A stretch of 64,000 bases of DNA from Porphyridium purpureum (taxonomy: Eukaryota; Rhodophyta; Bangiophyceae; Porphyridiales; Porphyridiaceae). Of this stretch, positions 1 to 62,590 are shown piece by piece (within the stretch, counting starts at the first letter, position 1; every line of letters starts with the position of its first letter). The translations under genes and the position numbers were made by a program. The notes under the pieces are model-generated. The model was not told the DNA's origin, ran no database searches, and saw only the letters and a list, made by a program, of their open reading frames with translations. The stretch spans positions 28,861 through 92,860 of the forward strand of contig VRMN01000022.1 of assembly GCA_008690995.1 (NCBI GenBank). The letters are read 5' to 3'.

Positions 1-545
1 ACCAGACGGTCCTCGGCCCCGTAGTTTCACTCCCACGCCCTTGAAGATATCTTCCGGGACGCAATCCCGAATTTTGCGACAGAATTAAGAGACTGTGTGA
101 TGAATTCGAAGAACGTTCCTTTCGAGACGCCGGCCGCCTTCCAGCAAATTATGAAGTAAGAGTTTCACGAAAGGACGAAAGTTAAATGCTGTGGGGATTT
201 TTGCATGCGCGCCCGAGGGGTCGCTACGTGTTGGTGAGCGGTCGCGGCACGGGCGCCAGGTACCGACCACTTGCAGCAAGCGCGAACATTAAAGGTGGTA
301 TCAGTGGAGTATTCTGGTGTAAAGTAGAAGCGGAAGAGCGGGATGGAAGTAAAACAAAAGGGATAAAATTGACAGGATAAAAGAGTTTGGTGCTGAAGCT
401 CATCGCTCTCAAACTTCTGTCGTGATCAGAGTTTAGGACGGGACAAACGAGCCATCGCGATCGCTCTTTCGCCCAGCAGCTACCAATAATTACAACAGGC
501 TGTCAGATTCCGCAACAATCCTAGTCTATTTCGGTACGGCCCGGA
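1..545. other. Left flank of the retrotransposon, no gene seen
   Basis: Only short unconvincing open frames are present. The stretch ends at the CCGGA target site into which the retrotransposon inserted. Confidence 0.5.
541..545. repeat. Target site duplication, left copy (CCGGA)
   Basis: CCGGA lies directly outside the left LTR and is repeated exactly outside the right LTR. Five bases is usual for Ty3/gypsy integrases. Confidence 0.93.
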
Positions 546-834
546 TGTTACCAATGCTGTGCCTTTTTCTCTCTCTCTTCTTCTTCTTTTTCCGAGCAAG
601 ACCTGACCGGCTAGTCCGGGCAGGCGCGTCGCCTTTTTATACCCTTACTTCCGCTAGGGACAGCAAGGCGCCAAGAGAAATGACAATGCAAATCATTGGC
701 ATTTCTGCGCGCGTCTAGAAGGTTCTGGAACCTCTAGAAGCTTCTAGAAACGGTTCAACGGTCTACCGGTTTAACGGCTTACCGGTTTTGGATTAACCGA
801 ACCGTTCTAGGTGACTGGGGTCGAACGGATAACA
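546..834 (-). repeat. 3' LTR of the gypsy element
   Basis: 289 bp, read as identical base by base to 5703-5991. Ends form a short inverted repeat (TGTTA / TAACA). Contains a TATA box (minus strand, 632-641) and two heat-shock-type triads (718-730 and 737-749). Confidence 0.95.
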
Positions 835-848
835 TCTCCCCCCCTCTT
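835..848 (-). other. Polypurine tract (plus-strand primer)
   Basis: On the minus strand the bases just before the 3' LTR are AAGAGGGGGGGAGA, an uninterrupted purine run touching the LTR edge as expected for the plus-strand primer of an LTR retrotransposon. Confidence 0.85.
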
Positions 849-953
849 GACTCGACGTCTCGGCGAGACTCCAAACTAAGTTGCATTCTTGGCTCGAGGA
901 ACCCGCGCTCCGGGAGAAAACCTCTGCCTAGCAAACTTCTCACAGTACCCAAG

Positions 954-2513
954 TCATTCAGAGTCAGACTCTTCGATAATTTTCAACAAGTCGGGCTCAG
1001 AATCGGACGCCGGCATTTCGTCGGGTACTTCTTCATCATTTTCCCCTGCCATGTATTCTTCGCGTCCATAGTATGGCCTCAGATGCTGGATCGGAAAAAC
1101 ATCATGACAAGCCACACCCTCGGGCAAAATCACTCGGTAAGCATGCGAGCTTACCTTCTCAATGACAGGCACCGGACCAAGAAACTTTGGTGCCGCCAAA
1201 TCACTCTTGTTCGGCCGCATTTGCGGCGCCGTGACCAACACTTGATCACCAACTTGAAACTCCCGGGCATCCTTGCGTCGATCGAAGAACTTCTGCATTC
1301 TCCCTTGGGCTTCGATCAAATTGTCGCGGACTTCTTCATGGACTTTGCACAGGCGAAACCAGTGCTCCGCCATGTCCTTCGTCTGTCCGTCACGCGCAGG
1401 CGTCCACCCTTCACTCGGTGGAAACCGAGGATCCCTTCCATATACCACTTTGAACGGCGCGAATCCAGTGGCACTGCTTGGTGCAGAGTTGTACGCAAAC
1501 TCATACAACGGCAAGTCTCGCACCCAGCCACTATTCGTCGCCATCAACTTGAGCATTTCCCGAATCACGCGGTTCACTCGCTCAGTTTGGCCATCTGTCT
1601 GCGGGTGGTTGGCGGTAGACATAGCCAACTTCATACCCACCCGCTTGCTCAACTGCTGCCAAAACGTGGACGTAAACAGCGGATCTCGGTCCGATACAAT
1701 TGACTTGGGGTATCCGAAACGGCTCACGACGTGCTTCACGAACAAGTCAGCACAACGTTTTGCTGTCAAGTCCTTGCGCGTCGGGATAAACAGCGCCATC
1801 TTCGAATATCGATCCACCACAGTCATGATTGCATCACAGCTGCCTTCGCTCCGAGGCAGCTCCGTCACGAAGTCCATCGAGATGTCGACCCAAGGTCCTT
1901 CTGGGATCGACAAGGGCTTCAGCTTTCCAAACGACCGATTCTCTGACTTTGTCACTTGGCATGCGTGACAAGTCTTCACAAAACGGCTCACGTCTCGCTT
2001 CATCTTTGGCCAGTAGAAGCGAGTCATCAAAGACGCATGAGTTGTGTCCGCTCCACGGTGCCCTGCTGTCGGGATATCGTGGTGGAGTTGCATGACACGC
2101 TCTCTGAACTTCCTCGGCACGCAAACGCGATTCCTCAAGTACAAGAGCCCAGCTTCGGTTCGAAAACCCTGGTGGGTCGGTAAATCTCCCATCAAAGTAC
2201 CAAAGTCTGGGTCACTCGAGTACGAACCCACGAATGCCTGGAAACCCGTACCAAATTCATCACACCGAACTTGGTACTCTAGCGCGTGCAACTCCGGCTT
2301 CCTCGACAAAGCATCGGCTACCACGTTCGACTTTCCCTTCACATAGTCGATTGTGATATCAAACTCGGCCAAAAAGTCCAACCACCGTGCTTGCCGGCCA
2401 TTCAGCTCCTTCTGCGTCATCAAATGTTTCAACGCCTCATGATCTGTGTGAAGCACAAACTTTGCCCCGTACAGATAAGGTCGAAACTCTCGCAGACAGT
2501 GAATGACGGCCAT
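954..2513 (-). CDS. pol: Pol, second part: end of RNase H and integrase
   Basis: 519-residue frame. It begins within RNase H (HTDHEAL and ARWLDFL are typical) and continues into the integrase: an HHCC zinc module (HHDIPTAGH ... CHAC), the DDE core with D in SMDFVTELP, D in VSDRDPLF and E in GQTERVNR, and a C-terminal small barrel with PKFLGPVPV. It is separated from the upstream pol frame by the one-base break near 2605-2609, so its first methionine is probably not a real start. Expected role is insertion of element cDNA with a 5-bp stagger, matching the CCGGA duplication. Confidence 0.92.
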   Translation of the reverse strand: MAVIHCLREFRPYLYGAKFVLHTDHEALKHLMTQKELNGRQARWLDFLAEFDITIDYVKGKSNVVADALSRKPELHALEYQVRCDEFGTGFQAFVGSYSSDPDFGTLMGDLPTHQGFRTEAGLLYLRNRVCVPRKFRERVMQLHHDIPTAGHRGADTTHASLMTRFYWPKMKRDVSRFVKTCHACQVTKSENRSFGKLKPLSIPEGPWVDISMDFVTELPRSEGSCDAIMTVVDRYSKMALFIPTRKDLTAKRCADLFVKHVVSRFGYPKSIVSDRDPLFTSTFWQQLSKRVGMKLAMSTANHPQTDGQTERVNRVIREMLKLMATNSGWVRDLPLYEFAYNSAPSSATGFAPFKVVYGRDPRFPPSEGWTPARDGQTKDMAEHWFRLCKVHEEVRDNLIEAQGRMQKFFDRRKDAREFQVGDQVLVTAPQMRPNKSDLAAPKFLGPVPVIEKVSSHAYRVILPEGVACHDVFPIQHLRPYYGREEYMAGENDEEVPDEMPASDSEPDLLKIIEESDSE

Positions 2514-4444
2514 GAGCTCACCTTCATAGCTGCTGTACCTGGTCTCTCGGTCCAGCAGCTTCCTCGACGTAAACGCGACCGGTCTGCCTTCCTGTGCCAG
2601 CCATCCCCCACCGCGACTTCAGAGCGGTCCGTGTACACCTCAAATGGCTTTTCAGGGTCTGGCAAGGCCAACACCGGCGCTTCCGTCAACATCCCGACAA
2701 TCTTCTTGAAGGCCGACTTGCCTTCATCTCCCAGTTCGATCAGCTGCTTCTTCGACTTTGCGTTCTGCAACAGCGAAGTCAGCGGCGCCACGACGGTAGA
2801 GTATCCTTTGACAAACCTGCGAAACCAGTTTGTCATTCCCAAAAAGGATCTCAACTCCGTCACCGTCTTTGGCACTGGCCAATCTCTCAAAGCTTCCACC
2901 TTCCGTGGATCCATCTTCACGCAACCGTTGCCGACAATGTTCCCCAGGTATTCGACTTCAGAAACGAAAAAGCTGCACTTCTTGCGCTTCAAACGATACC
3001 CTGCCTTTTGCAAGCGCGACAACACTTCCTTCAGGACCTCGCCGTGCGACTGCCTATCCTTGGTAAAGACCAAAATATCGTCCAAGTAGACAATGACGGT
3101 CTTGTCCAGCAGATCTGCAAACAGCTCGTTCATGGCCCTCTGAAAAGTTGCCGGCGCGTTGCAAAGACCAAACGGCATCACACGGAACTCGAACTGTCCG
3201 TACCTGGTCTGGAACGCGGTCTTCGGCACGTCCTCTCTCCGAACACGCAACTGGTGGTATCCCGATGCCAAATCCAACTTTGAGAAACAGTGAGCTGCGC
3301 CCAGTCGATCCAGCAACTCATCCATGTTCGGCAACGGATACCGGTCCTTCACAGTTGCGTCGTTCAACGCCCGATAATCAACGCACATCCTCATGCTGCC
3401 GTCTTTCTTCTTCACGAACAGCACGGGTGCTCCAAACGGGCTCTGACTCGGCTGGACGAATCCTTTGTCCAGCAAGTCATCCAAAGTCTCTCGGAGGACT
3501 TTCAACTCCGCAGGGCTCAGTCGGTAGACCCTGCCCACTCTCACAGGCTTCTCATCTTTCAGCCTAATCACATGCTCCACTGTTCGGCTCTCAGGCAGCC
3601 CACGTGGCTCCTCGAACAGATTTTCGAAATCCTTGAGCATCTTTCTCACAGAGTCAGCTTCTTTGCGCTCCACTGAACAGGGCTTCTCCCTTCCTTTCAG
3701 CACGCCGAGGTAGCACTCTTCTACCTCCTGACTCTTCAACAGCCGACGGAGCTCTTTCCGTGGCACCAGCATCTGCGTCATGCTCCAGGCCTTTTTCTCT
3801 CCGTAGGCCAACATGCCAGACTGCCAATCAATCACTGGGTTCTCCCGCTTCAGCCACTCCATGCCCAAGATTGCGTCTTGTCCCGCAATCCGGCAAATGG
3901 CAAAGGTAGCGGTCCCTGAGTACCCATCGCTCAGTTCAAACTTGACATTGGAAACTTCTCCGGCTGTTTCCAATACAGACCCATCCGCTAGGGTCACATG
4001 ATCTCTCTTCCACGACGCCTTCTGCTTCAGGCCGTCGGATTTCTGCACAAAGTCCACGCTCATGAAGTTGTCCGTCGCGCCACTGTCAATCAAAAACGTG
4101 GCCTCTCCGTCGGACTTGTGCACTTTTCCTCGAACTCGAAGAAGCATGGCAGCTCCCATCCCTCCAAGTTCCTTGATCACGGGCTGATTTGCGCTCGAGT
4201 TTCGCCCACAAGGTGTCGGACAGCCAGACCTTGGCTTACCAAGGCCACCACAGCGGTCTTCATTACCGCCCCTAGAGGTCTCGTAACGTGTGCGAGCCTC
4301 CTTTCCCTCTGACTGTCCGAGGAACCTCTCTACTCGAGCTCCTCGTTTTTTGACTCCAGCGAGTCTCCCTCCAGCTGCTGGATAGTCTTCCTTGCCTCGG
4401 GACACTTCCTCGCGATGTGTCCCGGCCTTCCACAATTCCAGCAT
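2429..4444 (-). CDS. pol: Pol, first part: protease, reverse transcriptase, start of RNase H
   Basis: The open frame is in -1 register to gag and overlaps it. It is probably not started at the methionine at 4444 but entered by frameshifting at 4345-4351. Domains in order: retropepsin with FLIDSGATDNF; reverse transcriptase with VDYRALN, FGLCNAPATFQ and the catalytic YLDD (YLDDILVF); then the RNase H opening EVYTD. After a five-G run (plus strand 2605-2609) the frame drifts into unrelated residues and stops at 2429, while the true RNase H continuation sits in the next frame. The break is either a recent inactivating deletion or a homopolymer assembly error. Confidence 0.9.
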   Translation of the reverse strand: MLELWKAGTHREEVSRGKEDYPAAGGRLAGVKKRGARVERFLGQSEGKEARTRYETSRGGNEDRCGGLGKPRSGCPTPCGRNSSANQPVIKELGGMGAAMLLRVRGKVHKSDGEATFLIDSGATDNFMSVDFVQKSDGLKQKASWKRDHVTLADGSVLETAGEVSNVKFELSDGYSGTATFAICRIAGQDAILGMEWLKRENPVIDWQSGMLAYGEKKAWSMTQMLVPRKELRRLLKSQEVEECYLGVLKGREKPCSVERKEADSVRKMLKDFENLFEEPRGLPESRTVEHVIRLKDEKPVRVGRVYRLSPAELKVLRETLDDLLDKGFVQPSQSPFGAPVLFVKKKDGSMRMCVDYRALNDATVKDRYPLPNMDELLDRLGAAHCFSKLDLASGYHQLRVRREDVPKTAFQTRYGQFEFRVMPFGLCNAPATFQRAMNELFADLLDKTVIVYLDDILVFTKDRQSHGEVLKEVLSRLQKAGYRLKRKKCSFFVSEVEYLGNIVGNGCVKMDPRKVEALRDWPVPKTVTELRSFLGMTNWFRRFVKGYSTVVAPLTSLLQNAKSKKQLIELGDEGKSAFKKIVGMLTEAPVLALPDPEKPFEVYTDRSEVAVGDGWHRKADRSRLRRGSCWTERPGTAAMKVSSWPSFTVCESFDLICTGQSLCFTQIMRR

Positions 4445-5151
4445 TTGAGCTCGCTTCGAACACGCCTCTGACCCTGCACATGTCCCAGCTCCATCGGGAC
4501 GGGTCCTTCCTGCGCTGCACGACCGAAAAATGGCGTCCTCACACTTGAATCACGCACGCCGCGGGTCGCATGAATGGCGTCGTCCACGACCACCGCCACC
4601 TGCGCAGCCTCCGCAAACGTGCTCACTCCTCGCTTGTACACTTCTAAGCGGACCTCGGGCTTCAGACCCCTCACAAAGCGGTCCATCATTTCTGCGTCCG
4701 ACAAGTCCGGAATCACAAGTGCCGCGTCCTGAAAAGCCGCCACATACGCATGGGCCGGGCCTTTCTGCGAAAGACGCGTCAACTTGTCCCTTGCACGCCT
4801 GATCGAATCCTGCGGCGTGAACCGAGCACTCACGAGGGCAGCAAAATCATTCCACGTCGTGGGGATCTCCTGCGGGTAGCGCTCGCAATTCAGAACCCAC
4901 CAATGAAGCGCCTCTCCCTCGAAATAGTCTGATGCCAGGTCTACTGCACGCCTCTCCGCAAGCAGACGTTTCTCCAAATCGTCCGGGTGGATGCTCTCCA
5001 ACAGCCGGCCCAAGATCTTCTTTCTCGCCTGGAACAACCACGTCTTCACAACCAGAAGGTCACGCTTCCCGTCGAACCTCATCTGACGGGCCTCCTTCGG
5101 GCCACGTGGTCCCAGCGTCTCCGAATCAATCTCCATGCTTTCTGGACACAA
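4330..5151 (-). CDS. gag: Gag (capsid-nucleocapsid) of the gypsy element
   Basis: 273 residues. The middle (about 80-170) has the helical capsid pattern with ALHWW and a later FVRGLKPEV segment, as in retrotransposon gag proteins. Near the C-terminus a single zinc knuckle CWNCGRPGHIARKC (C-x2-C-x4-H-x4-C) marks the nucleocapsid. The frame ends a few codons after an A AAA AAC slippery heptamer (4345-4351), so a fraction of ribosomes should continue into pol. The protein packages element RNA in cytoplasmic particles. No interruption is seen. Confidence 0.92.
   Translation of the reverse strand: MCPESMEIDSETLGPRGPKEARQMRFDGKRDLLVVKTWLFQARKKILGRLLESIHPDDLEKRLLAERRAVDLASDYFEGEALHWWVLNCERYPQEIPTTWNDFAALVSARFTPQDSIRRARDKLTRLSQKGPAHAYVAAFQDAALVIPDLSDAEMMDRFVRGLKPEVRLEVYKRGVSTFAEAAQVAVVVDDAIHATRGVRDSSVRTPFFGRAAQEGPVPMELGHVQGQRRVRSELKCWNCGRPGHIARKCPEARKTIQQLEGDSLESKNEELE
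4345..4351 (-). promoter_or_regulatory. -1 programmed frameshift slippery site (A AAA AAC)
   Basis: In the gag frame the codons are TCA AAA AAC, giving the canonical heptamer in the correct phase. Slipping back one base enters the pol frame exactly. A five to six base pair hairpin (GAGGA with TCCTC) can form directly downstream, though the spacing is shorter than the usual 5-9 bases. Confidence 0.8.
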
Positions 5152-5685
5152 GCACGCTCAACGATCACGACAACTCGAACAGCAAGCCTCCGATGCTCAC
5201 TTTCTCCAACAGCTGCGCGCACCACGAACGGGCTCGGTCGCCCTCACGAACACAAACCGACACACGAAGCTGTCCTCTCACGCACACACACGCACAGCAA
5301 TCTTCTCACGCACACACAACAAAGCACACAGCAATCCTCCTCTGTTGCGCTGGATGGGGAGCGGCCCGGGCCTTTGCACTGGGGCGGGGATTATAGATGC
5401 GATCTTGTATGGAGGTGTTCGGCGCCTACCTTCGCAAAGGTGGTCGTGCGACACTAGGATGAATCCTAGTGAAGGCTGACCGTTACGGCTCTTGCCTACT
5501 AATACGTGCTAAGGCAGAGAGCGAGTCCGCCGTCAAGGCCTAGGCCTATCGTACAGCCAAGACTGAGACCCGCTCCACCCGTCGCACCCTCCGGATCGAC
5601 TTACTCGAACCCCCTTACCCGCAGACTCTCCCACCCAGGCAACCCCAGAGAAACTCTAAGAGAACCTTAGAGCAACCCCAGGTAA
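5152..5685 (-). other. Untranslated leader of the gypsy element
   Basis: About 530 bases between primer site and gag start. It includes a stretch rich in CACA repeats (about 5270-5340). No ORF worth reporting; packaging and dimer signals would be expected here but none can be recognised. Confidence 0.6.
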
Positions 5686-5700
5686 CCAGCGATGATACCA
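5686..5700 (-). other. Primer binding site, initiator-tRNA-like
   Basis: Two bases inside the 5' LTR the minus strand reads TGGTATCATCGCTGG. TGGTATCA is the start of the site used by many plant retroelements for initiator tRNA-Met. The implied acceptor stem would begin 5'-AUCAUCG, an A1:U72 pair, which is a hallmark of eukaryotic initiator tRNA. Matching it to the alga's own tRNA is not possible here. Confidence 0.7.
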
Positions 5701-5702
5701 AA

Positions 5703-5991
5703 TGTTACCAATGCTGTGCCTTTTTCTCTCTCTCTTCTTCTTCTTTTTCCGAGCAAGACCTGACCGGCTAGTCCGGGCAGGCGCGTCGCCTTTTTATACC
5801 CTTACTTCCGCTAGGGACAGCAAGGCGCCAAGAGAAATGACAATGCAAATCATTGGCATTTCTGCGCGCGTCTAGAAGGTTCTGGAACCTCTAGAAGCTT
5901 CTAGAAACGGTTCAACGGTCTACCGGTTTAACGGCTTACCGGTTTTGGATTAACCGAACCGTTCTAGGTGACTGGGGTCGAACGGATAACA
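5703..5991 (-). repeat. 5' LTR of the gypsy element
   Basis: 289 bp with the same sequence as 546-834. It is the promoter-bearing copy because gag-pol reads leftward from it and the primer binding site abuts its inner end. Confidence 0.95.
5789..5906 (-). promoter_or_regulatory. LTR promoter with two heat-shock-type elements and a TATA box
   Basis: Read in element direction, two perfect GAAnnTTCnnGAA triads (5894-5906 and 5875-5887) lie about 80-110 bases upstream of TATAAAAAGG (5798-5789). GAAnnTTCnnGAA is the consensus for heat shock factor. The same arrangement is present in the other LTR. That the promoter responds to heat or stress is inference. Confidence 0.65.
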
Positions 5992-35747: not shown

Positions 35748-35753
35748 GGCATT

Positions 35754-45244: not shown

Positions 45245-45313
45245 CACTTGATTTTGCAGTCTTTCTTTATTGCCTAGTAAACCGCTGTACGCACGAAAAG
45301 TCTACTGTACCTA

Positions 45314-50084: not shown

Positions 50085-50548
50085 ACCGGCTCGTATGCGA
50101 ACTGTGCATACTTCTTTCGCTTTGCACTGGGCGCTCTGCCACCTGAGAGCATTTTACGCTCCTTCTTTGCTGCGTCATATTTGAAGTCGGGAGCCAAGCG
50201 AAGTGTTCGACCGCGATTGAACAATATGTAATTTGAATAAACGCGTACACAATCAGAAAGCCAATCAGCCTTCGTCATTTTCTTTCACCTTAGCCACGGA
50301 AAGAATGACTTGTTGGCTACTAGCTTGCAGATACAAGAAATACTGGGTTAGCTCACAAACATAACTCGCATCGCCGGAGGCTGCTCGAGCTTGGTGAAAT
50401 GCCTGCCTCATACTAGGCAAACGCTCGCTCCATTTCCAAAATTAGAAGCTTCTAGAGCTATACGCAGTAGTCGCACAGTGTTCGCTGCGCAGAACCCTTC
50501 CGCCGAATTCTGATGGCACTTCTTATGAAAGGGCCTCGTTCTTCAACA
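50085..50548 (-). repeat. Diverged LTR-like repeat, right copy
   Basis: Same-orientation partner of 41650-42124, ending CTTCAACA at 50548. It contains GAAGCTTCTAGAG (about 50446-50458), one base short of a perfect heat-shock triad, as in the gypsy LTR. In one minus-strand frame a short peptide (DFKYDAAKKER) is partly shared with the left copy (DFQYDAAQTEC), so the repeat may include a little coding sequence. Confidence 0.6.
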
Positions 50549-50929
50549 TGTGCATCCTTCAGCTAATTCAACCTTGCACGGTCGGCAAAACCCGAGACGG
50601 AGCGACAGGTCGACCATATTTATTCCACGAATTAAAGGAAAATTGGTCAAACGGCAGACACGACCACGGACAGTAGGAAAACTGCAACTGGTAGAAATGG
50701 CGAAAACGCAACAAACTGGACCAAATTATGGATATGCTTTAGCAGGCAAAGCTAAAGTACCTCGATTCCTATCAAGATATACTGCTTTATTATCGACAAG
50801 TTCCAAAACGTCGCCAAACATTATTGCAAAAGATTTACAGCGGCGAAGCTCAGTTCATCCAAGACGAGAAGTGTGTTCTTCCGAACACTGCCTCGACGAT
50901 GGCGAGGGCTTGCGGCTCTCATTGCTGGA
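50549..50929. other. Nothing recognised
   Basis: About 380 bases between the LTR-like repeat and the Mutator-like pseudogene. Only short frames. Confidence 0.4.
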
Positions 50930-53217
50930 ATCATGCCATTGCTGAATCAGGCGCGCGAAGAAATGGCGTGTTCAGGATTAGACTGGCTGTGATGGCAATG
51001 CTTTCCAAATTTTCTAACGCGCCTTGTTGACCCGTATTATCTTGCAATCTCGGATAACCCCAAAAGCGATGACTGTGGCCGACGCTCTGGCATCTTGAGC
51101 ACACAGATAGCCGGCGTTGAGCAGCGTCGGCAGTATTCAAAGCAGCAAACGTAGAAGTCTGCATTGAGCTAGGCGTCATGGAGCACGACCCGGCCACTTC
51201 GCACAACCTCTGACAAGTCGATCGTGTACGACCAAGGAGGCAACAGTTCTGGCACCTTTGAGGCCGACGTGTGTCTAGATGCAGTTGTGCGTGCTGTCAT
51301 ACTATTCGCGCAATTGCGTGCGGGCGTCCCTGTTGCCGACGAATGGCGTATCCAGTCACTGGCGTGCAACAGCTCGAACCTCCATAAACGAACGGAGAGA
51401 TTTCAAAGTTTTCGAGCCCAGTCACATCCGTTGTTCGAATTTTGATTGAAAAGAATTATGCGTGCCTTACGCCGCTTTCTGAATAAGTCTCTCAATAGGC
51501 CGAAGCAGCTAAAAACGTTAACATCAGGTGGGACACATCCGGTCGAGCATGCTGAGTACAAAACCATATGTGATTGCATGGTTCGCCGTGAATTTCTGCA
51601 TACCCACACGTGCAATCATACGCCGACATGGCCAAGGCGACCTGCACCACATGCTGACCGCCTGTAGCAGTAGACAGTGTCACGTGGACCAAGGCTTTAA
51701 GTCCATGACTTAACAACTCGCGCACGACAATAAAAGGAATCTTCTCTGCATTAGCGCGTTTGCGCTCACGACTCGGTGTGAGCTGAGCTACTCTTTTCGC
51801 CTTTTCTGCCCCAATTGCGAACCGCGCTGCTGCATGAGTAACCACTTCACGCAGGGCAAACAATGCACACACACCGCGGACGCCCTCGACATGATGGCTC
51901 GCGGATTCGAAGGCGTGTGATGAAGTACTCCCCATTGTCGCATGATGTAGCGATAGCGGATGCCACTGTTCTTGTGGAGGTAGCCACGCGGCTGCCTCTG
52001 GATGCTGCGCCGCAAAGAAGTGCCAGGCTCGGCTCCAGCCCTCTTCCGTCAACACTCCAAGACATTTCTTGAAAACATCACACGCTTCTTTGCCCCATAT
52101 TTTGGCTGTATTCTGCGCAATTTGGAAGATGCAGCTATTCCACTTATAGCCCTGAATTTTGCTTCCCAGGAGACTTTAGATCTCATCCGATTCCAACGCC
52201 TTTCTAGCATGGCTGGTCGCAATGAAATGATCAAACAATACGGAGTAAGGAATGCCGGTACCGCTTGAGTCCAGTCGTCGAGAGCGAAGCATCACGTCGG
52301 AATATCTTCATTCCCCGTAGTATGCGCTAAAACCAACTGGATGAGAGCGACATCCGCCTCCAATGTCACAAGAAACAAGAGCAGTTTCCGGCATCTTGCA
52401 CTGTCGATCGAGCAAATGTAGCGTCAACGCAGCACCACGGCCGGAGTTTGCTCAACTCCGCGAATGTTTTAGCATACCCAGGAACAAACGAAGACCCACT
52501 GTACAACTCTTGCTGTGGAGTGTCACGGTCAAACGGATTTCTTCTTGACTTCGTGCGTAGTCGTACCTGTGAACAACAGAACCCGGCTGCCGCCTCTGCT
52601 CGGCAAATACACTGCACCATTGTGTTGATCTTCGTCAAACATTTGCACGTTTTCGAGTCATCTTCCAGAAAGTCTACGTGCTCCAAGACGCGTTGAATAG
52701 TCCGCACCGGAAGCAATTCTGAACGTGCGTTAATTTGAAATCGTAATCTTGTCAAATTGTGTAAAATATTGCTCGCAAATGAACGACCGGCGACATTTGC
52801 TGACACTAGAGGTCCGCTATCACTGGCTACTAGGCGTAAACATTTTGATGCTCCAGTTGATCGGAAAAGACTTGCCGGCATGCGGAAACGCCCGTGTGTA
52901 GAATCTTCTGCCTACCTTATCGTCTTCAGGATTCTTGAAACGGTGCAAATATGCAGGAAAGTACTTGAAGAATGCAGCACGCTCATAGAAGAGTCTGCAG
53001 AATCTCGCCAGCCCGCCGCGAATGTGCATGATTGGCAAAGATAAATAGCATTACCCTTGGCGACCGAAAATTTGCAATATGTTCCACGCGCTTTCGGTAC
53101 ACTACCCTGGCGATAAGCAAAAACTCGTCCAGAAAAAGTTCGAGCTCGCGAAGGTTTTTGAACGATGGCCATTAAAAGAATAAAGCGCCGCCTCTGCGTA
53201 TTCCCCAATCCCCCCAC
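50930..53217 (-). pseudogene. Mutator-like (MULE) transposase pseudogene
   Basis: Minus-strand frames broken by stops and shifts. From the 5' side: a possible FLYWCH-like N-terminal part (52912-53217); the start of the MULE catalytic domain with LRPWCCVDATF (about 52366-52450); a helical piece (52049-52234); a SWIM zinc finger with CTCGYAEIHGEPCNH (C-x-C-xn-C-x-H, about 51570-51630) in the 51492-52055 frame; then a degenerate CSRCQSVGHSH knuckle near 51080. SWIM after a MULE core is typical of MuDR/FAR1-type transposases. No terminal inverted repeats were identified. Confidence 0.72.
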
Positions 53218-55499
53218 AACCTCTACGAATTCGAGCGCTCTCCTGGCAAGACAGCATTAGCGCGTAAGATAACCAATACTGGGCAACAAGAAGCTAGGGA
53301 ATGAAATGCAAAGCTGCATGTTCCAAATTGTATCCCATTTTTTATCAATTTTGGTGCGCTTTTGGTTCTTTGTGAAAAGTGAGTATGGACACGCAGCTAT
53401 ATTTTCGGGCGTCCCGGTACGTCCACACACGTTCGTTGCGTCCAGCGCAACCAGCCGCGCATTCTCCTTTGGTGGTCACCTGAAACAACCCAAAGCATTC
53501 TGTACTTGGTGCACTTCATCTATCTCTCCTTTGTGGCTATCAGTATAGTTCTACAGAAGCCTGCATTGATGCGTTGTGCTGAATTGTCAGCAGTTTGCCA
53601 CTTTCGTTTCGAGACGCTTGCAACTAGTTGTTCGCCGGTTCAAAATATTGAATAGCGACATTCGATCCCTGGAAATACTCTGACTTTTGCCTGCAATTGT
53701 TTTCAATATTTTGCTTCCCGTACCGGGTACAAGGAGTGTGGGCCGGCCATGATAAGATACCAGTGAATAAAAGTTTGGCTCTTTGATTGTGCTTTACGTA
53801 TGTCTGGAGACCCGTTTTGTTAAGGTTTTTGACTTATTTTCTGTTCTTATGCTTACCTTCCCTTTCGGCGTGCAGCATACGCACGCGGAAGTGCGACCTA
53901 TTTATCCAGGTCGCGAACCGAGGCAGCTGAAATCGCAGAATATCGATAGGGGGTATGGAGGTGTTTTGCAAGGCTAAACAAGTGAAAAAAGAGCCCAACA
54001 AAGCTGACACGTAACCCACATTGGCTTCTACAAAGCTGGCGCACATGTCACTGCTCCTAGATTTGCTCCTGCCATGCAAATATCCTAGCCACACCAAAAG
54101 TGCACATTCGCTGCACATTATTACTCTACTAGCGTCTGAGAGCACTCATATTGGTATCATTCTTTCTCTGCGCACAAAAGTGCATCCTCTGTGTGTCGAT
54201 GATCTATGAACATCGCGAGTGCTAAATATCGTGTTTGATTCAGACGTTGATGTTGATAATATTTTTGATTTTCACCCTGTGCTGCAACTCTACATTAAGC
54301 GTGCCGTCCTTCAGAAAATTCGTCCAAAATCCGCTAGCGTTGGCCTTTGACCTCGTCAGAACATGTGCTGGATTGTACACGCCAGTCTTCATCCAGATTT
54401 TATCTATTGCCCATGTCGAATGCTTCACATCTTATATCAAGGGCTGCCACAATTCTCATCTCTCGTGCACTGAATTTGCAGCCGAGCGCGTCATACAGAT
54501 TTTTCAAGGGTGTAAGTATCTTTAGAAAGCATGAATTAATATTCATCAAGTAATCCTTTTATCTTTTCTCCGATATTAAAAGTGTCTATGAACGTTACTA
54601 ATTCGGTAACCAATACAGACTTCGTCCCATGCTTTGTGTCGTATGATGCACTTACCAAAGAATGTGCATCTGACCTCATCAATGACGGCGACTACAACAA
54701 AGACGGCGATCTCTTATTGCACCGTTCCTGGACACTCTGCTACGGTCTGGGGGGCTTCTGAGAACACCGTTACGTCAGGTTTTTTCGTCCGTACTTTGAA
54801 GCGTTTGGATACCGGCCCCGTAGTCCTTGCGCAACGTTTGTATCTTTTTGCATAGCCGCGCCAGCTTTGCAAGATCCTTAGCATCAGGTTTGACCATCTG
54901 TGCCGCCAAATTTGCGTGGATTCGCATGTCTGGTCAATTATTGATCAGTATCCATGCAAGCCACATATTTTTTGGACCGGAGCGTCCAACGGGTCTTGCC
55001 GACAGAGATTGTATATTTGAGTTAGACATGAGCATTTCTCCACGAATTGGTGTTGTTCAAGAAGTATCATTTCGTTCACGTCGCAGAACGTGGTACTATC
55101 AAATTTGTACGGCACATTCTTCTGTTCTGAGGTCTCGAATGACTTCACGACCAAGTCTTCTGCTATCGCAAGTGCTGAAATACCCGTGCAAAAAAAGTTA
55201 TCCTACACGAGTACAATCATACCGTCGCCCACAAAGCGCAAAAAAGGCAACTATCGAGAAATGCGTGTCGCGTGAAAAGGCATTTTCTTGAGGACCTTGT
55301 CGACGGTCTTGTGCCAGTGACTTCTTTCGACGAGCCCGTACAGTGGGGACAAGACGCGTGAACACAACTTGTCAGCTTCTGCGCCTCTTTGGCCACGGCC
55401 TTGGACAATACCCAGTACGGTGATCGAGAACGATGACACAATTTACGAGTGCGCGTTGGGTTTGACTATAAGTGCGCTCGTATACGGTCTCGAAACCAT
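53218..55499. other. Gene-free, AT-rich stretch
   Basis: About 2.3 kb with only short frames. A minus-strand piece near 54830-55010 (AKDLAKLARLCKKIQTLRKD) hints at another decayed element, without a family call. Confidence 0.4.
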
Positions 55500-56990
55500 A
55501 TCCCGCTCCATTTCCCGGCGGGACCCACAGACCGTTCTATCGGTGCATCAACAGCAGTCTGAAGAGTCTGACAAGCGACGACATGGTAATCACGAGACTG
55601 TACGACGCATCCCTGCGGGCGAATGGGATCATGACCCACACGCTCCAGGTGCTCAAGTTGTACCCGCTCCATTTCCACGATAAGCGTGTCGCTCTGCCTA
55701 CGATCGACCGCCCTTTCGTGGCCTCGGTGATGAAGATCCTGTAAGAGGAGCCCAAGTGCGGACAGCCGTCCAGCAAAGAGACCAAGCGCATCAAGAACAC
55801 GGTGAAAGCGTTTTACAAGGTGCACTGCAAGCCTCATGTGGTAGGGCACCTCAACTACCGCCGCACGCACTCGGCACTAGAATACCTGGCGATTGACGTG
55901 ATCACAATATACAAAAGCAATCTCAAGCACCAAATCGTGGAATGCATCGAGCGTTTCGTCAATGTATCGAAAGAGAAAAGCGCGCTGCTCGCGGTCATTC
56001 AAAAGCACAAGAATACCACCGGCCGGTATCAGGCGGCGGCCCAAAGCACTGTGTGCTCATATGCGGAAGATCAAGAACGACCTCCTGAGCCCCGAACATC
56101 CGAAGAAGGCATACCGGCTGTGCCACGCGTGGATCGACAAGCAGAGCCACAACGTGTTGCACTCAAAAGAAGCTTCGGAAGGACAGCAGTATCTACCACA
56201 ACATGCAGAGTTCGCGGTAGGACTACCTTCCGCACATGCTGTACATGATGAAGGCCGTCGAGGCTCGGGATGCGAGCGCGAGCAGCGCGTCTTCCTTGCG
56301 GAGCCAAATCAGCCCGACGCATCCCCGTCTCGAAACGGTGTCGCTGGTCAACCTCTTTTTCTTTGCGTGTTGGGCAAGCGTGGTGATTGCACGAGAAAGG
56401 GTAGCCTGGTCCAGTACAAGGCGAATATCTGGGGCTTCTTCTTCAAGATCGATACGAAGTGCTTTCACCTCAGAGACGTCATACATGCACACACGTTTGA
56501 CCACCAAATTGAGATAGACCGCGTACGGTGCAGCATCCTGCTGAAGTGGAGGGGCATGGTCGAAAAATCCGTCAAGGAACTGAAACCGGAGAAGGGCAGC
56601 GGCGAGACATACATCGATAAAGCAGAGGAAGATACGCCTCTGACTGACACACAGGTCGTCGCTGTAGATGCCAATCAATCTGACCCGCTGTACGGTGTGG
56701 CCAACGATACCAGGAGCAAACCAATTTTCACCCAGAACACACGCCGCAAGGAGACAAAGACAAACTTACCGCAACTACAAGCAACTCAAGCAAAAGGTGG
56801 CGGATGGTAAGCGCGTAGTGGAGAGGGAAGCGGAGCTGAGCGCCTGCAAGCGAAAGACGACGGACTTTTTCAAGTTCAAGGTGAACATCCAAAGAAAGAA
56901 CGAGGTTCACGATCAGCTCGCGTCGTCTTTACAATGAGTCTATCTTCCGCAAGCTCAAGCTGGGAGACTACGTGCGGCTTTAAATCACGG
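55500..56990 (+). pseudogene. Decayed Fanzor (eukaryotic TnpB-like RNA-guided nuclease)
   Basis: Plus-strand homology runs through three frames. N-terminal part: ANGIMTHTLQVLKLYPLHF and LPTIDRPFVASVMKIL (to 55741), a TAA at 55742-55744, then in the same frame ALEYLAIDVITIYKSNLK and IERFVNV. After shifts near 56050, 56230 and 56400: YLPHML, HPRLETVSLVNLF, IWGFFFKIDTKCF and HTFDHQIEIDRVRCSILL. The RuvC-I aspartate is in VVAVDANQSDPLYG (codon 56667-56669), followed by TQNTRRKETKT. After another shift come EREAELSACKRKTTDFFKFK and KLKLGDYVRL, and the match ends near 56985. RuvC-II, the zinc finger and RuvC-III are absent. Fanzors are guided by an RNA made from the element's 3' end; none is visible here. 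Confidence 0.75.
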
Positions 56991-57524
56991 ACGTTCTTTG
57001 TTTGACCCCATTCGTCTAAACGACTCAAGTATTTTGAAACCTGTAAGCCGATTGGCCACTTTGACGTGAAAGCGCTTTCAGAAACTTCTTTAGAGTCTAG
57101 AAAAGTCAAGACATGTTAAAACATAATGATTTTCTCAAAATGTTGAAGTTCCTCTGAGGAGCTGTACCTCCACTGCACAGGCTTCACATGTCGTGCGGAC
57201 TGCCGCTCGCTGCATTTGTCGTAGTCGTCCTCGAGAGCCGAAAAGCGCTGCCTCACCTCGTGCATATATTAGTGCGCCAAGTAGTCAGAGGTTCGCCGTG
57301 GTGCGCGGGGTTCTGGGGTGGAGATTAGCGTGGAGAATATATAAAACCAAATGTTTCTTGTGCTAACAAAGTGGCAAGGAGCTGAGAAGCCGCTTCCTGC
57401 GAAGTCGACCGCGCGTACGTTGTGAGAAATGCATTGGTGGCCGCATAGCAGCCTTCTCCGCATTGTGTAGGCCTCTCCCGGTTCGTCAAAACCCAGCGAA
57501 ACCGGTAAAGTTTGCGGCAGACTT
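56991..57524. other. Nothing recognised
   Basis: About 530 bases after the Fanzor relic. No ORF supported; the last part (57470-57524) may be the worn start of the LTR relic that follows. Confidence 0.4.
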
Positions 57525-57672
57525 GCAATATCATTTCTCTCGGCGCCTTGTTGTCCCTGGCGGGAAGCAAGGGTATAAAAAGAAGACGCGCCTGCCCGGA
57601 CTAGCCGGTCAGGTCTTGCCCGGAGAGAGAAGAGGTGAGAAGCAAAGAGTAAAAAGGCACAGCATTGGTAAC
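57525..57672 (+). repeat. Relic of the gypsy LTR, opposite orientation
   Basis: Plus-strand sequence matches the reverse complement of the gypsy LTR from ATTTCTCTYGGCGCCTTG through GGGTATAAAAAG, the block GCCTGCCCGGACTAGCCGGT and AAAGGCACAGCATTGGTAACA. It has several substitutions and indels. The heat-shock motifs of the intact LTR are missing here. This is an old copy of the same family, oriented plus. Confidence 0.85.
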
Positions 57673-58279
57673 ATTCTGCAACCTCCTTGACCCTTTTTGC
57701 TCGGTTCGACGAAACTCTTCGTGCACGCCTTGCGTTGAGTACTTTTCTGGCCTTCGCGCATTTTGTCGACGCAAACCAGTCCCAAGAGAAGGGTACTCGA
57801 GCATAGCACTTGAGTTCTCGTGGCAATGATCCGAATGCCGCGTAAATGAATCACATTTTCGCCACAAGTATTGCAATTGGTGGAGCAGAACTTACTTCCA
57901 GGACAAGCGCTATGTGGATGCATGGTGCACTCCTCGCTGAAAGTAAAAACCTGTGAAGAGAGCGTTGCCACTTCGACACCCTGCTCCTTTGTGCAGGGGT
58001 TTCGTGAATGTTTTTAACTGGGCTTGTCTTTTGCCCTTCTCTCTTTATTGTCGGACTGGACAGGAGGCTGTGCTACGTGCTAGTTATATATCCTTCAACT
58101 TGCAACGGTCGTTCACAGACGGTCCTGACCCAAGGGGCAGTGACCGTTTGGCTTCACGATCAAGAGCACATGAAGCTGCTCTGAAAGACTATACAGTCCC
58201 TCTTCCCGTTACGCTCTTCGATTTTGTAACCGCACTCTTTACCGAAAACGATTCATTGGAATTTCACACTGCTCAGGCT
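57673..58279. other. Nothing recognised
   Basis: About 600 bases between two LTR scraps. A minus-strand frame (57609-57971) has a cysteine cluster (CPGSKFCSTNCNTCGENVIH) that may be a zinc-finger scrap. Confidence 0.35.
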
Positions 58280-58370
58280 AGCCTGTCAGGTCCTGCTCAG
58301 CCAGAAGAGTGAGAAGAAGAGAAAGAGTGAGAGACCTTCAGTAAAGACCACTCGAGGACGCAGCTGGTAA
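58280..58370 (+). repeat. Second, more worn LTR scrap
   Basis: GGCTAGCCTGTCAGGTCCTGCTC followed by GAGAAGAAGAGAAAGAGTGAGAG resembles the transcribed end of the gypsy LTR (ACTAGCCGGTCAGGTCTTGCTCGG plus a GA-rich run), then CTGGTAACA. Weak but in the right order. Confidence 0.45.
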
Positions 58371-58849
58371 CAACTGAAGCTTGTCTGCTTGCACAGTCCG
58401 AGAAGCTGTCCGATGGGCTCGAGGAAAACATCATACCGATTGGCGACTTTGACCAACGCAAGCCCCGCAAGAACAGAGAGTCTATCTGAGGGAAACGGTT
58501 CCGGATCATGTTTCGCAAGGCCGGCAATCAGCGTGTTTCTGGCAGACGAGTTCCTGACCAACTGCCATTGCAGTGCATACGGCGGTGGATGTAAGACGTG
58601 CAGAGTGTGCGAGAGCTTCAGACTGTATCGTAGCGCCAAAGTCCTGAGAAACAAACTCGTCGAGTGTGAGACTTGCTCGAGGCTGTAGAATAAAGTTCCG
58701 AGCGCCGCCTCAAACATTTAGAAGGTAGCGCTCAGCGCGACTTTAGGCGAAGAGCGTCCGGACTACCTTTACATGAGTCAGAGACCACATCCGTGGTCCT
58801 AAATCGGTACCACAAAACCAAGGTTCACCTAGCGATGCACGATAAAATA
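58371..58849. other. Nothing recognised
   Basis: About 480 bases downstream of the ankyrin gene's stop, including its 3' untranslated region. Confidence 0.4.
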
Positions 58850-60463
58850 TCATCCGCTCAAAATGATGCGTCGCTTGTGCGCCGTGGTCAGATACGAATT
58901 GAGCAGCAGTAGAGATGCGTCGTTCAGCTGAGGTAATGGTGTGTTTTGGAGCAAAGCCATTAGCGCTGTTTCCCTTTCAGGGTGATCCGCGCCATGATTC
59001 ACGTCTGCACCATGCCTTACAAGGTACGAAAACAAATCATGGCGGACAGCCTGATGCAGTTGGGAATCGTGCCAGGCGACAATCAGGTCTAATGGACAAT
59101 AACCGCGCCAGTCTGCCTGGTTCATAGGTATTTTGTGCGCAATGAGCCGCTGAATGATTGAGGAAATGCACGGCAACGTGATGGTCGAGCTCTCTTCGAA
59201 GGAAGCCAGCAGAATATGGAGCGCGTTTCTCCGACGACGCGTTTCCGTGATTGTCAGATCCGCATTGCGATCCAACAAAAGATGGACCATTGCCTTGTCT
59301 CGATTACGCACGGCAATGATGAGAGCTGAGGTGCCATTGTTGTCCAGCGCGTTGACATCCGCGCCGTACCGAAGAAGCAAGCGCGCGGTCGAGACATGGC
59401 GATTTTGGACGGCGCTCATGAACGCCGTATTGCCTGTGTTGTTCGTCTGGTCAATCAAGGCGCCTCTTCCGAGAAGGACGCACACGCTTGTGTTCACCCC
59501 GCACTTGGCGGCCAAATGCAAGGCTGTGTTGCCCGTGCGATCGCACGCATTTATATGCGCGTCATAATCCAGTACAAGATTGATTGCTGCACAGATGTCG
59601 CTTCCTGACGGATTCTGGATCGAGGGCATGGCTGCTGCCATTAATGGCGAACGCCCAAGATCGTCCTTGATCTCTGTGTATGCCCCGAATGCGAACAAAG
59701 AGCGCATACAAGAAACGTGACCATTTTGTGCGGCATGCAGAAGCGCGGACCGACCACGACAGTCCTGCAAGTTGACTTGCGCACCAGCCTCAAGCAACAA
59801 GACCAGGCAGTTTTCGTGGCCCTTGACGGAGGCCGACATTAGTGCCGAACGACCGGCATCGCTCTGATGGTCCACGTGCGCACCATTTTCCAACAGGAGG
59901 CGCACGCCCGAACTGTGTCCGTTTTCGGCAGCGAGAATAAGTGCAGACTGACCGAAGTAGTCATCTAGGTTGACTCGCGCAGACGCTTCCAGTAACAAAC
60001 GCATGCATGACTCGCTACCTGTGACCGAGGCAATCAGAAGCGCCGAAAGACCGCGACCGTCTTGCATGTCTACTCGCGCTCCCGCTTCTAGTAAGGGACG
60101 CAAGCAGTCCTGTTGTCCACCTTTAGCTGCGGACATGAGCGCCGACTTCCGCTGCATGTTCTGCAAATCCACTTGCGCGCCTTTCTCAATTAAGATTCGG
60201 ACACACGCAAGATTCCCGGCCTCGGCAGCGTACATGAGTGCGGATTGGCCGTCCGCGTCGAGCAAGTCAATATCGGCGCCGGCGTCCAGCAACGCGCAAA
60301 CGCACGCATCCTGACCCGCCTGCGCGGCGCGCATCAGTGCCGTCTGGCCTCCAATCCCTCTGACATTCAAGTCGTCACAAGACGCAATACTTTCCTGCAC
60401 AGCTGCCCAGTCCTGTGTTTCCGCTGCGTCCAGAAACGTACACTGCCGCGACGCCTTGTCCAT
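58850..60463 (-). CDS. Ankyrin-repeat protein
   Basis: 537 residues from an ATG. About a dozen 33-residue ankyrin repeats run from residue 35 to beyond 480, with clear cores such as GGQTALMRAAQAGQDACV, GQSALMYAAEAGNLACVR, GRSALMSASVKGHENCLVLL and GNTALHLAAKCGVNTSVCVL. No other domain, signal or membrane segment. Ankyrin arrays are protein-binding scaffolds, so partner and role are unknown. The repeats agree well, which suggests the array is intact. Divergent from the RbfA-like gene with about 210 bases between starts. Confidence 0.92.
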   Translation of the reverse strand: MDKASRQCTFLDAAETQDWAAVQESIASCDDLNVRGIGGQTALMRAAQAGQDACVCALLDAGADIDLLDADGQSALMYAAEAGNLACVRILIEKGAQVDLQNMQRKSALMSAAKGGQQDCLRPLLEAGARVDMQDGRGLSALLIASVTGSESCMRLLLEASARVNLDDYFGQSALILAAENGHSSGVRLLLENGAHVDHQSDAGRSALMSASVKGHENCLVLLLEAGAQVNLQDCRGRSALLHAAQNGHVSCMRSLFAFGAYTEIKDDLGRSPLMAAAMPSIQNPSGSDICAAINLVLDYDAHINACDRTGNTALHLAAKCGVNTSVCVLLGRGALIDQTNNTGNTAFMSAVQNRHVSTARLLLRYGADVNALDNNGTSALIIAVRNRDKAMVHLLLDRNADLTITETRRRRNALHILLASFEESSTITLPCISSIIQRLIAHKIPMNQADWRGYCPLDLIVAWHDSQLHQAVRHDLFSYLVRHGADVNHGADHPERETALMALLQNTPLPQLNDASLLLLNSYLTTAHKRRIILSG

Positions 60464-60673
60464 CGCGCCGGACGCAGCCGGACGCTGCCAGACGCTGCCA
60501 GACGGCGCTGGAAGCTACCAGACGCTTCCTCCAGTTTGCCCGGGTCTTGGTTCTGATCGCGAGCACCTGCCTTTCATTGATCTATCGGCGGACTTCATTC
60601 AAATCCGACGTACGAGCGAACGCCTGCACGACGACAAGCCTAAAGCCTGCACGCAAACGTGTTGGGCGGCAAC

Positions 60674-62590
60674 ATGGTTTCACCGTGCTCTGCGGCACGA
60701 GCACGCGGGCTGTTACTGCGCGTGCAGAAGACCATGCGCGACACGCCAGCGCGGGTTGCACTTGTGAGAAACATCTCGGCATACGCTCGAGTTGAGGACG
60801 ACGTGCACAGGCACTGCAGGATATCGTGTGGGCGGACAACGATTACACACGACAGATGCTGTGGTAGCAGCACAAACATGTCCAAGCCTGTGTCTCGATT
60901 TTCTAGACGTGCGCTGTCACGCGATGGTGGCGGCGAAGAAGCTCCAGCGTGTGCGTCATCCGTGTCGGCCGTGTATGCGGGGTCGTTCACGAGAGATTTT
61001 GGGCGGACGCGCTCATCGCTTTCCTCCTTGCCGTTGCGAGCAACAGCAAAAGCCATGGACCTGCCTGCAGCACACGTTGCGCGGAACAAAAGATGGATCA
61101 GCTCGTCGGCCATGTCGAGCGCATCGGACGACGACGAAGTTGAAGGATTCACTGAATATACATCTGCGGAAAGAGATGCAGATGAAAGGCGCCCATTGAC
61201 GCTTTCCGAGCGACTCGTCAATCCGGAAGAGGTCGTGACTTTCAGAGACCCGAGCGGCAAGGTGATTCGCGGCCGAGTCGTACCGAGCGCGGAGCTCATG
61301 ATCGAGAAGGCAAACAAGACGTTGTCTAGCGGCGAGTCTGGCGGTGCAGGTGCCGAAATGAAACACTGCGTCGAAAAGGGCGCAGACTTGGATGGAATAC
61401 AGAATGACCATGGTCTCCTGGCGGCTGTTCCGCATGAGTCAGTTGACGATTGGCAGGAACTGGTGTCGAAGGCAGAGCGCGGAGAGCTGAACGACCCAGA
61501 CGATCCAGGGCTGGCGGAAAAAGTGCTGGAGCTGAATCGACTTTTCGCGGATGAGAAGACTTCAATCCAAACTATTGACGAAGTCCATGACTCGGGGAGC
61601 GAAGAGGCTCATGCGGCTTCAGGCGCTAATGAGTTTGGCTTTGAAGGTGATCCAAACGAGACGATTTCGAGCAGCTTGGAAGAGGCGAGCCAAATGGTGC
61701 ACGAAGTTTCGTTTGATTTTTCGAACAAGAAGAGGGAAGTGCACAAGTGGAAAGTCGAGGACGAAGACGAACTCGAGGCAAATGATCCGTCATATTCGCG
61801 ATTTGATGACACTGACTACATGGATAGCGAAACAAAAGAGCGCGCTATGAGGCATTCGGAGTCTCCCAAGGCTTCGTCTCCGCCAACAGGCGGCACCCCA
61901 CAGCGTCTGGCCGACGCCGAGCAGTTCGAGATGGAAGTCGCTGCGGACAAGCGCAAGCTGGCGGTAGATTTGGCCAGCACTCATGGGTCGGAGCGCATCC
62001 GAAAACTTATCAAGCGGCGGCACCACTACACCGAACGCGACGAAGCAAATGGGCCTTCTGCTTCAGTTGGCGCGGACAGTGCGGGAGCAAGACTGGCACG
62101 TGCGGCCCCTATGAAATCTGCTGCAGCAACGGGCACGCGCGGCAAAGCCAAGGCAGCCGACTCGCATATTTCTGCGCCGGCCCAATCAAGAGCCGCGGCC
62201 ACTAGACGCCCGTCCTTGGCCCAACTGACTCGGCTACAAGATGTGGTTCGGAAAGTTGCCGACCAGGCTTTGGCGCAACTGAGCTCACGGGCGGTGCACA
62301 AGACGCTTAGCATTCTCCGCGCTGAGGTGGCTGGTAACATGCGCGCGGTAACCCTTGTGTGGACTCCGGGCGACTTCATGCTCGACATCGAGCTTCCTTC
62401 AGACCGCGAGGCACACCTTGAGCTTTTGGAAACCTTCCTAGAGTGCGAACTTCGTCCGCGCGTGCTCAAGGACCTCTGCATGCACATGCTTCCCAAGGCC
62501 GTGCCGGAGCTGACGTTCAAGAGGGCCGGCCACGGCGCGCAGCAGCACCTCGTCGACGCTATCTTTGCTCGCATTCGATCCGAAGCGTGA
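60674..62590 (+). CDS. RbfA-like ribosome-assembly protein, mitochondrial
   Basis: 638 residues from the first in-frame ATG (60674). The N-terminus is basic (SAARARGLLLRVQKTMRD, then LVRNISAYA) like a presequence. A long acidic, disordered middle (about 155-450) follows. The last about 115 residues resemble RbfA's KH-like fold: LQDVVRKVADQALAQLSS, ILRAEVAGNMRAVTLVWTPG, and the closing AVPELTFKRAG...VDAIFARI, which matches the r.vPel.F pattern. RbfA-like proteins bind the small ribosomal subunit during maturation. The identification rests on this C-terminal part. Confidence 0.72.
   Translation: MVSPCSAARARGLLLRVQKTMRDTPARVALVRNISAYARVEDDVHRHCRISCGRTTITHDRCCGSSTNMSKPVSRFSRRALSRDGGGEEAPACASSVSAVYAGSFTRDFGRTRSSLSSLPLRATAKAMDLPAAHVARNKRWISSSAMSSASDDDEVEGFTEYTSAERDADERRPLTLSERLVNPEEVVTFRDPSGKVIRGRVVPSAELMIEKANKTLSSGESGGAGAEMKHCVEKGADLDGIQNDHGLLAAVPHESVDDWQELVSKAERGELNDPDDPGLAEKVLELNRLFADEKTSIQTIDEVHDSGSEEAHAASGANEFGFEGDPNETISSSLEEASQMVHEVSFDFSNKKREVHKWKVEDEDELEANDPSYSRFDDTDYMDSETKERAMRHSESPKASSPPTGGTPQRLADAEQFEMEVAADKRKLAVDLASTHGSERIRKLIKRRHHYTERDEANGPSASVGADSAGARLARAAPMKSAAATGTRGKAKAADSHISAPAQSRAAATRRPSLAQLTRLQDVVRKVADQALAQLSSRAVHKTLSILRAEVAGNMRAVTLVWTPGDFMLDIELPSDREAHLELLETFLECELRPRVLKDLCMHMLPKAVPELTFKRAGHGAQQHLVDAIFARIRSEA

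What the first reader, a model, noticed from the sequence alone, without database searches (positions are those of the whole stretch)
55500..56990. Decayed Fanzor (eukaryotic RNA-guided nuclease) in a red algal genome
Fragmented plus-strand homology follows the Fanzor plan from the N-terminal helical region to the RuvC-I aspartate (VVAVDANQSDPLYG) and the QRRKETK-like motif (here TQNTRRKETKT), then EAELSACKRKTTDF. It has at least five frame changes and two stops and breaks off before RuvC-II. It shows that an OMEGA-type element once occupied this lineage; intact copies may exist elsewhere in the genome.
Basis: partly seen in the sequence, partly recalled or inferred. Interest (0 to 1): 0.82.

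Follow-up and report, generated by a model that had tools for sequence, protein, structure and literature searches.

The report
Dead Fanzor1 nuclease gene, Porphyridium
This is the broken remnant of a Fanzor1 gene, the eukaryotic kind of RNA-guided DNA cutter, in a unicellular red alga; it is nearly full length but split in two by an old retrotransposon, and it belongs to a family already known from red algae.

Summary
Public proteins of unnamed hosts match the read-through remnant with up to 60% identity, E 3e-172. A profile of 26 of them finds in the PDB, at E <= 0.01, only three chains, all Fanzor1. The gene does not break off before RuvC-II: RuvC-II, zinc finger and RuvC-III remnants lie at window 58373-58842. 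Between the halves sits a 1381-bp remnant of a Ty3/gypsy-type LTR element (56992-58372) with LTR-like ends and a target duplication agreeing at 4 of 5 bases. The remnant spans aa 7-665 of 670 of the best relative, with six stops and seven frameshifts; the RuvC-III Asp is lost. The C38 'copy' is the counterpart of the same region, about 99% identical over 24 kb. The genome search gave six further remnant places, none intact, two of them weak. A phycobilisome linker in the window points to Porphyridium purpureum. Fanzor1 in a red alga has been in print since 2013 (PMC3627910). No guide RNA or transposon end was found.

The parts
55475..56991 (+). 5' part of the Fanzor1 pseudogene (matches P0001 aa 7 to about 510): N-terminal helical part, TDG-like region, RuvC-I, QRRKETK-like motif; 5 frameshifts, 3 stops
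   Evidence: frameshift-aware alignment; tblastn; controls
56667..56669 (+). codon of the RuvC-I aspartate (D400 of P0001), retained
56987..56991 (+). left target-site duplication ACGGA (pairs with ACTGA at 58373-58377, 4 of 5 bases)
   Evidence: sequence, limits
56992..58372 (+). decayed LTR-retrotransposon insert, 1381 bp; start resembles the LTR start, ends in GGTAACA; an LTR 3' part at 57520-57674
   Evidence: 155-base match to the LTR at 545-834 (87% by blastn); no Fanzor signal inside (score 41)
58373..58377 (+). right target-site duplication ACTGA
   Evidence: sequence, limits
58373..58842 (+). 3' part of the Fanzor1 pseudogene (P0001 aa about 510-665): RuvC-II, zinc finger, RuvC-III remnants; 2 frameshifts, 3 stops
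58548..58550 (+). codon of the RuvC-II glutamate (E568 of P0001), retained
58686..58697 (+). RuvC-III WNRD place, destroyed: stop, Asn, Lys, Val
545..5991 (-). Ty3/gypsy-type LTR retrotransposon (LTRs 545-834 and 5702-5991) whose LTR resembles the insert; a copy on C38 at the place of window 45608-45615 has the perfect 5-bp duplication CAAAG

Best explanation
The locus is an old, inactivated gene for a Fanzor1 protein, the eukaryotic relative of bacterial TnpB. While intact it would have made an RNA-guided, RuvC-type DNA endonuclease of about 660 residues, presumably carried by a DNA transposon and cutting DNA at sites named by a guide RNA made at the element's 3' end; that step is inferred from tested Fanzors and not shown here. 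It then decayed by stops and frameshifts. At some point a Ty3/gypsy-type LTR element inserted at about codon 510, leaving two halves 1.4 kb apart. A sister copy on contig C46 decayed by mostly different lesions and lacks the insert. As assembled, no copy found could make an active nuclease (inference).
For: 131 proteins at E <= 10 among 5087 candidates; the best 3.3e-172, 60% identity, 100% of the query; the 120 listed all carry precomputed PF26935 and most also PF07282. In a direct scan 4 of 4 relatives tested match PF07282 above its cut-off, while PF26935 did not appear in that library's output. Profile A1 of 26 relatives against the PDB: at E <= 0.01 three distinct chains, Parasitella, Spizellomyces and Guillardia Fanzor1, 2.4e-65 to 6.1e-41; the next of 7 at E <= 10 is 0.32. 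The window's 282-aa ORF alone matches one chain at E <= 10, Parasitella Fanzor 1, 0.013. Both halves are collinear with P0001 and score above all shuffles and controls. LTR homology and target duplication. C46 is continuous across the insert site, and window 58377-58523 matches L016 8465-8611 at 74%.
Against: Neither guide RNA nor transposon ends nor a transposase of the same element could be shown: Rfam gives 0 matches at gathering score in 53000-60600, and no DNA match was found between the flanks of C34 and C46. Five fragments scanned alone (3 of the window, 2 of L003) gave no Fanzor or TnpB match in Pfam, only one weak unrelated DUF (E 0.057). The insert's TSD agrees at only 4 of 5 bases and its second LTR is weak. 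C34 and C38 do not differ in the coding halves although they differ at 18 places in the 1381-bp insert, and C34 against C46 gives dN/dS of about 0.33/0.62; both could be read as some constraint.
Confidence: 0.95

Rival explanations
1. The gene is working, and the breaks are introns or assembly errors.
For: Relatives with unbroken frames exist. The coding halves are identical in C34 and C38.
Against: Two contigs that differ around it and inside the insert agree on every break. C46 shows comparable decay (6 stops, 7 frameshifts) at mostly other places. Long ORFs of 1499, 1262 and 1181 aa stand in the same window. The insert starts CG and ends CA, not GT-AG, and frameshifts of 1-2 bases cannot be introns. 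The RuvC-III Asp is replaced.
Confidence: 0.02
2. It is a bacterial TnpB or a Fanzor2 (IS607 type), moved into the alga or present as contamination, and not a Fanzor1.
For: PF07282 and the conserved C-terminal plan are shared by TnpB, Fanzor2 and Fanzor1 (PMC3627910, abstract and passages seen).
Against: The family profile hits only Fanzor1 chains strongly; the other four PDB rows at E <= 10 are at 0.32 or worse over 30-76 positions. The contig carries a phycobilisome linker nearly identical to a PDB chain, and a Ty3/gypsy-type element.
Confidence: 0.04
3. On origin (compatible with the best explanation): it is a relic of a virus-borne Fanzor1, delivered by a large DNA virus of algae.
For: Fanzor1 occurs in large DNA viruses (PMC3627910, passages). 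One IMG/VR contig carries a 671-aa relative, 48% to P0001 (L044).
Against: Three viral scans (P0001, A1, A2) gave 0, 1 and 0 relatives, and that one is far below the 72-86% of the nearest relatives aligned. The scans test few peptide patterns, so this is weak evidence. No search for viral genes around the locus was made beyond the Pfam scans named.
Confidence: 0.2

Closest known systems
Fanzor1 of Parasitella parasitica, Spizellomyces punctatus and Guillardia theta (PDB 9cf0, 8gkh, 9cer)
   Same: The profile of 26 open-frame relatives matches them at E 2.4e-65 to 6.1e-41; best stretches cover profile positions 5-481, 10-632 and 325-514 of 645
   Different: The window copy is dead; no guide RNA was found for it
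CMe-1A of the red alga Cyanidioschyzon merolae (PMC3627910, section 12 read)
   Same: Fanzor1 in a rhodophyte, in copies about 80% like their consensus, without TIRs or known class
   Different: About 150 copies there, a handful of remnants found here; sequences were not compared
Public proteins P0001-P0012 of unnamed hosts
   Same: Nearest relatives, 52-60% identity over the query; C34 and C46 group with P0004-P0010 and P0020
   Different: Open frames; in the 26 proteins aligned in A1 the residues D400, E568 and D617 are invariant

Membership tests
Fanzor1 | Conserved plan D-X(125,275)-[TS]-[TS]-X-X-[C4 zinc finger]-X(5,50)-RD (PMC3627910) | tested here: met
   Met in the open-frame relatives: P0001 D400, T571, S572, C575, C578, C607, C610, R616, D617. 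In the window copy D400, T571, C575, C607 and C610 remain; S572, C578, R616 and D617 are changed, as expected of a pseudogene
Fanzor1 | Sequence relation to named Fanzor1 proteins rather than Fanzor2 or TnpB | tested here: met
   strong PDB matches to Fanzor1 chains only. No tree with named Fanzor2 or TnpB references was made
Fanzor1 | RuvC-II glutamate | tested here: met
   E568 invariant in 26 relatives and present in the window at 58548-58550
Fanzor1 | Guide (omega) RNA at the 3' end of the element | tested here: inconclusive
   No Rfam match at gathering score; DNA similarity between C34 and C13 ends at 58761, inside the coding part; DNA of the near relatives was not available
Fanzor1 | Carried by a DNA transposon with ends and target duplication | tested here: inconclusive
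   No shared flanks found between C34 and C46, no convincing terminal inverted repeats
Fanzor1 | RNA-guided DNA cleavage | not testable with these tools
   Bench assay; the window copy is not expected to be active (RuvC-III Asp lost, frame broken)
Ty3/gypsy-type LTR element (the insert) | Paired LTRs with TG..CA ends and a target duplication | tested here: inconclusive
   LTR homology 57520-57674 and end GGTAACA, start CG for TG, TSD 4 of 5 bases, second LTR only weakly similar

The most novel reading that the evidence does not exclude
Four of the six extra remnant places match mainly the 3' end of the gene (C13, both C43 places, C2). They could be relics of short elements that kept the 3' end because it carries the guide RNA and were served in trans by a full Fanzor1. 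Against this: C43 at 998 kb also has a weak match to aa 54-175 (E 7.5e-4) and C13 one to aa 418-448 (E 0.119), and the better conservation of the C-terminal half makes such fragments easier to detect, which explains the bias more simply.
Probability: 0.06. Interest if true: 0.55.

Novelty: new member of a known kind. Interest (0 to 1): 0.27.

Why it matters
It adds, by what was seen here, a second red algal lineage in which Fanzor1 was once present and of which only remnants were found in the sequenced genome, and it ties these to a family of open-frame public proteins. It also corrects the gene's extent. It would matter more if the hosts and guide RNAs of those relatives were known.

Tried and rejected
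Rejected: truncation before RuvC-II. Rejected: an independent second copy on C38; the region matches C34 over 40090-64000 at 98.6-99.2% and carries an extra retrotransposon, so it is an allele, haplotig or large duplication. Left open: capture of the Fanzor by a MULE-like transposon. Of two ORF pieces at 51495-52911 (-) one has a sub-threshold SWIM match (E 0.0055) and the other none, and no match to them was found in the held stretches around the other remnants. Three pieces at 54778-55442 (-), which looked to me like a reverse transcriptase, have no such Pfam match, only sub-threshold ones to unrelated families (DUF1765 8.4e-4, BldD-like_C 9.7e-4, Csx12 0.082). Inverted repeats around the locus: 15 pairs of 18-30 nt, 70-84% complementary, none convincing as transposon ends. 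Phage records: no match for the 282-aa ORF. Rfam: none in 53000-60600. No structure prediction was run, since the sequence profile was decisive.

Weak rows: C2 (E 0.026) and C43:4181690 (41 residues, E 6.5e-8) are tentative; shuffles of places that were picked from a whole genome flatter them. C1 is 37% over 418 positions. In the tree 100 of the 120 listed proteins (600 aa or longer) and three remnants were used; L044 and 20 shorter proteins were left out. The codon count dropped residues next to a frameshift.

Full report
What was checked. The frames of the 5' part were read through piece by piece and searched against 5.8 billion proteins: 131 of 5087 candidates had E <= 10, the best 3.3e-172 with 60% identity over the whole query. 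Of the 120 listed, 100 are 600 aa or longer; the 12 near ones aligned in A2 are 649-670 aa and 72-86% identical to P0001. Their hosts are not named. A profile of 26 of the 120 (A1) finds in the PDB, at E <= 0.01, three distinct chains, all Fanzor1 by their names (Parasitella 2.4e-65, Spizellomyces 5.2e-59, Guillardia 6.1e-41; the Spizellomyces name is cut in the listing). At E <= 10 four more rows appear, none better than 0.32. For the window's own 282-aa ORF, unaided, the only PDB match at E <= 10 is again Parasitella Fanzor 1, E 0.013. The same ORF and four other fragments have no Pfam match of this kind, so the signal needs relatives of the right length.

The gene is longer than reported. 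tblastn with P0001, P0005, P0017 and P0043 finds the C-terminal part at window 58373-58769 (4 of 4 queries). A frameshift-aware alignment gives P0001 residues 7-518 on 55475-57013 (313 of 509 identical, 3 stops, 5 frameshifts) and 503-665 on 58346-58842 (91 of 163, 3 stops, 2 frameshifts). The inner ends of the two alignments run some bases into the insert. Scores 1471 and 391 compare with at most 42 in 10 shuffles (5 each) and 38-53 in 6 control stretches; the insert itself scores 41. RuvC-I D400 and RuvC-II E568 are kept; S572, C578, R616 and D617 are changed and W614 is a stop.

The insert. Window 56992-58372 starts CGTTCTTTGTTTGACCCCA, like the LTR start TGTTATCCGTTCGACCCCA of the element at 545-5991, holds a 155-base match to that LTR's 3' part at 57520-57674, and ends GGTAACA like the LTR. 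The flanking ACGGA and ACTGA agree at 4 of 5 bases. The model element has protease, reverse transcriptase, RNase H and integrase domains in the Ty3/gypsy order, and its copy on C38 shows the perfect 5-bp duplication CAAAG at the place of window 45608-45615. A second LTR at the insert's right end is only weakly similar, so this is a decayed element, perhaps rearranged. C46 reads through this point without an insert.

Other copies. The window lies on C34 of a 22.16-Mb, 46-contig genome. C38 carries the same region: 99.2% over 45608-64000 and 98.6% over 40090-45615. In 55475-58842 all 18 differences lie inside the insert, none in the coding halves. Stretches with few or no differences occur nearby too (for example 59000-59999), so I take this as a mosaic of alleles, but it could also be read as constraint. 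This is one locus seen twice, as alleles, haplotigs or a large duplication; both carry the insert. A P0001 search gave 25 matches at E <= 1, which I group into this locus and six other places: C46:291952-293744 (353 of 593 identical, 6 stops, 7 frameshifts), C1:999364-1000657 on the minus strand (155 of 418, 4 stops, 9 frameshifts), C13 at about 743 kb, C43 at about 998 kb, C2 at about 1069 kb and C43:4181690 (46 residues aligned). None is intact. The C13 piece seems to join a QRRKETK-like stretch to the C-terminal tail, which would be an internal deletion. Counts are lower bounds by the tool's own note.

History. C34 and C46 group together (support 0.972) inside a clade with eight of the listed proteins (0.998) in a midpoint-rooted tree of 100 proteins and 3 remnants; the next node outward has support 0.14. 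Over 544 shared codons they differ at 162, 150 and 191 first, second and third positions; dN/dS is about 0.33/0.62. That is mostly neutral change with a trace of past constraint. Lesions are at mostly different residues (a frameshift pair lies at 434 and 435 and a pair of stops at 250 and 252), so the two copies seem to have died separately. The inference is mine.

Host. An ORF at 33896-35752 (-) matches the PDB chain 6kgx_zE (phycobilisome linker LRC3) over all 498 residues, with one difference in the printed alignment. That 6kgx is the Porphyridium purpureum phycobilisome is recalled.

What is known. Bao and Jurka 2013 (PMC3627910; abstract, section 12 and passages seen; [quoted passage not shown] RNA-guided cleavage by a fungal Fanzor1 is in PMC10432273 (passages seen); PMC10711439 treats Fanzor evolution (passages seen). 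Full-text searches: Fanzor with Porphyridium, 1 paper, a review whose mentions are unrelated to each other (passages seen); Fanzor alone, 82 papers, 40 listed (three of them opened as above, besides that review); with 'red algae', 5 papers, 4 listed, listing only; with 'pseudogene', 2 papers, listing only; Porphyridium purpureum with genome and transposable element, 28 papers, 15 listed, none opened. None of what I saw reports this locus; subscription journals are missing from that library.

Mechanism. Shown: family, decay, insert, lost catalytic residue. Inferred from tested relatives: RNA-guided cutting, link to a transposon. Not found: guide RNA, transposon ends. The result is an ordinary, well-supported member of a known family; the main gain is the corrected gene extent and the set of open-frame relatives.

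Noticed in passing
window 545-5991 and C38 (L011-L012) at the place of window 45608-45615: A Ty3/gypsy-type LTR retrotransposon with identical 290-bp LTRs in the window; another copy (97.6% like it) interrupts only the C38 version, with 5-bp duplication CAAAG: this suggests recent activity.
   Followed up: partly
window 40090-64000 against C38:44001-73388: C34 and C38 are counterparts about 99% identical, with stretches of 0-3 differences per kb alternating with stretches of 10-23 per kb: perhaps alleles with loss of heterozygosity, or a duplication.
   Followed up: partly
window 51495-52911, minus strand: Broken ORFs, one with a sub-threshold SWIM zinc-finger match; to my eye a MULE-like transposase (recalled motif).
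   Followed up: partly
window 43185-45056: A 623-aa ORF without a Pfam match above threshold; its middle looks like a Plavaka/KDZ-type transposase (recalled).
   Followed up: no
window 58850-60463, minus strand: A 537-aa ankyrin-repeat ORF whose 3' end abuts the 3' end of the Fanzor remnant.
   Followed up: no
L044 1393-1755, minus strand: Next to the viral-contig Fanzor relative lies an ORF that looks like a GIY-YIG nuclease (recalled, not tested).
   Followed up: no
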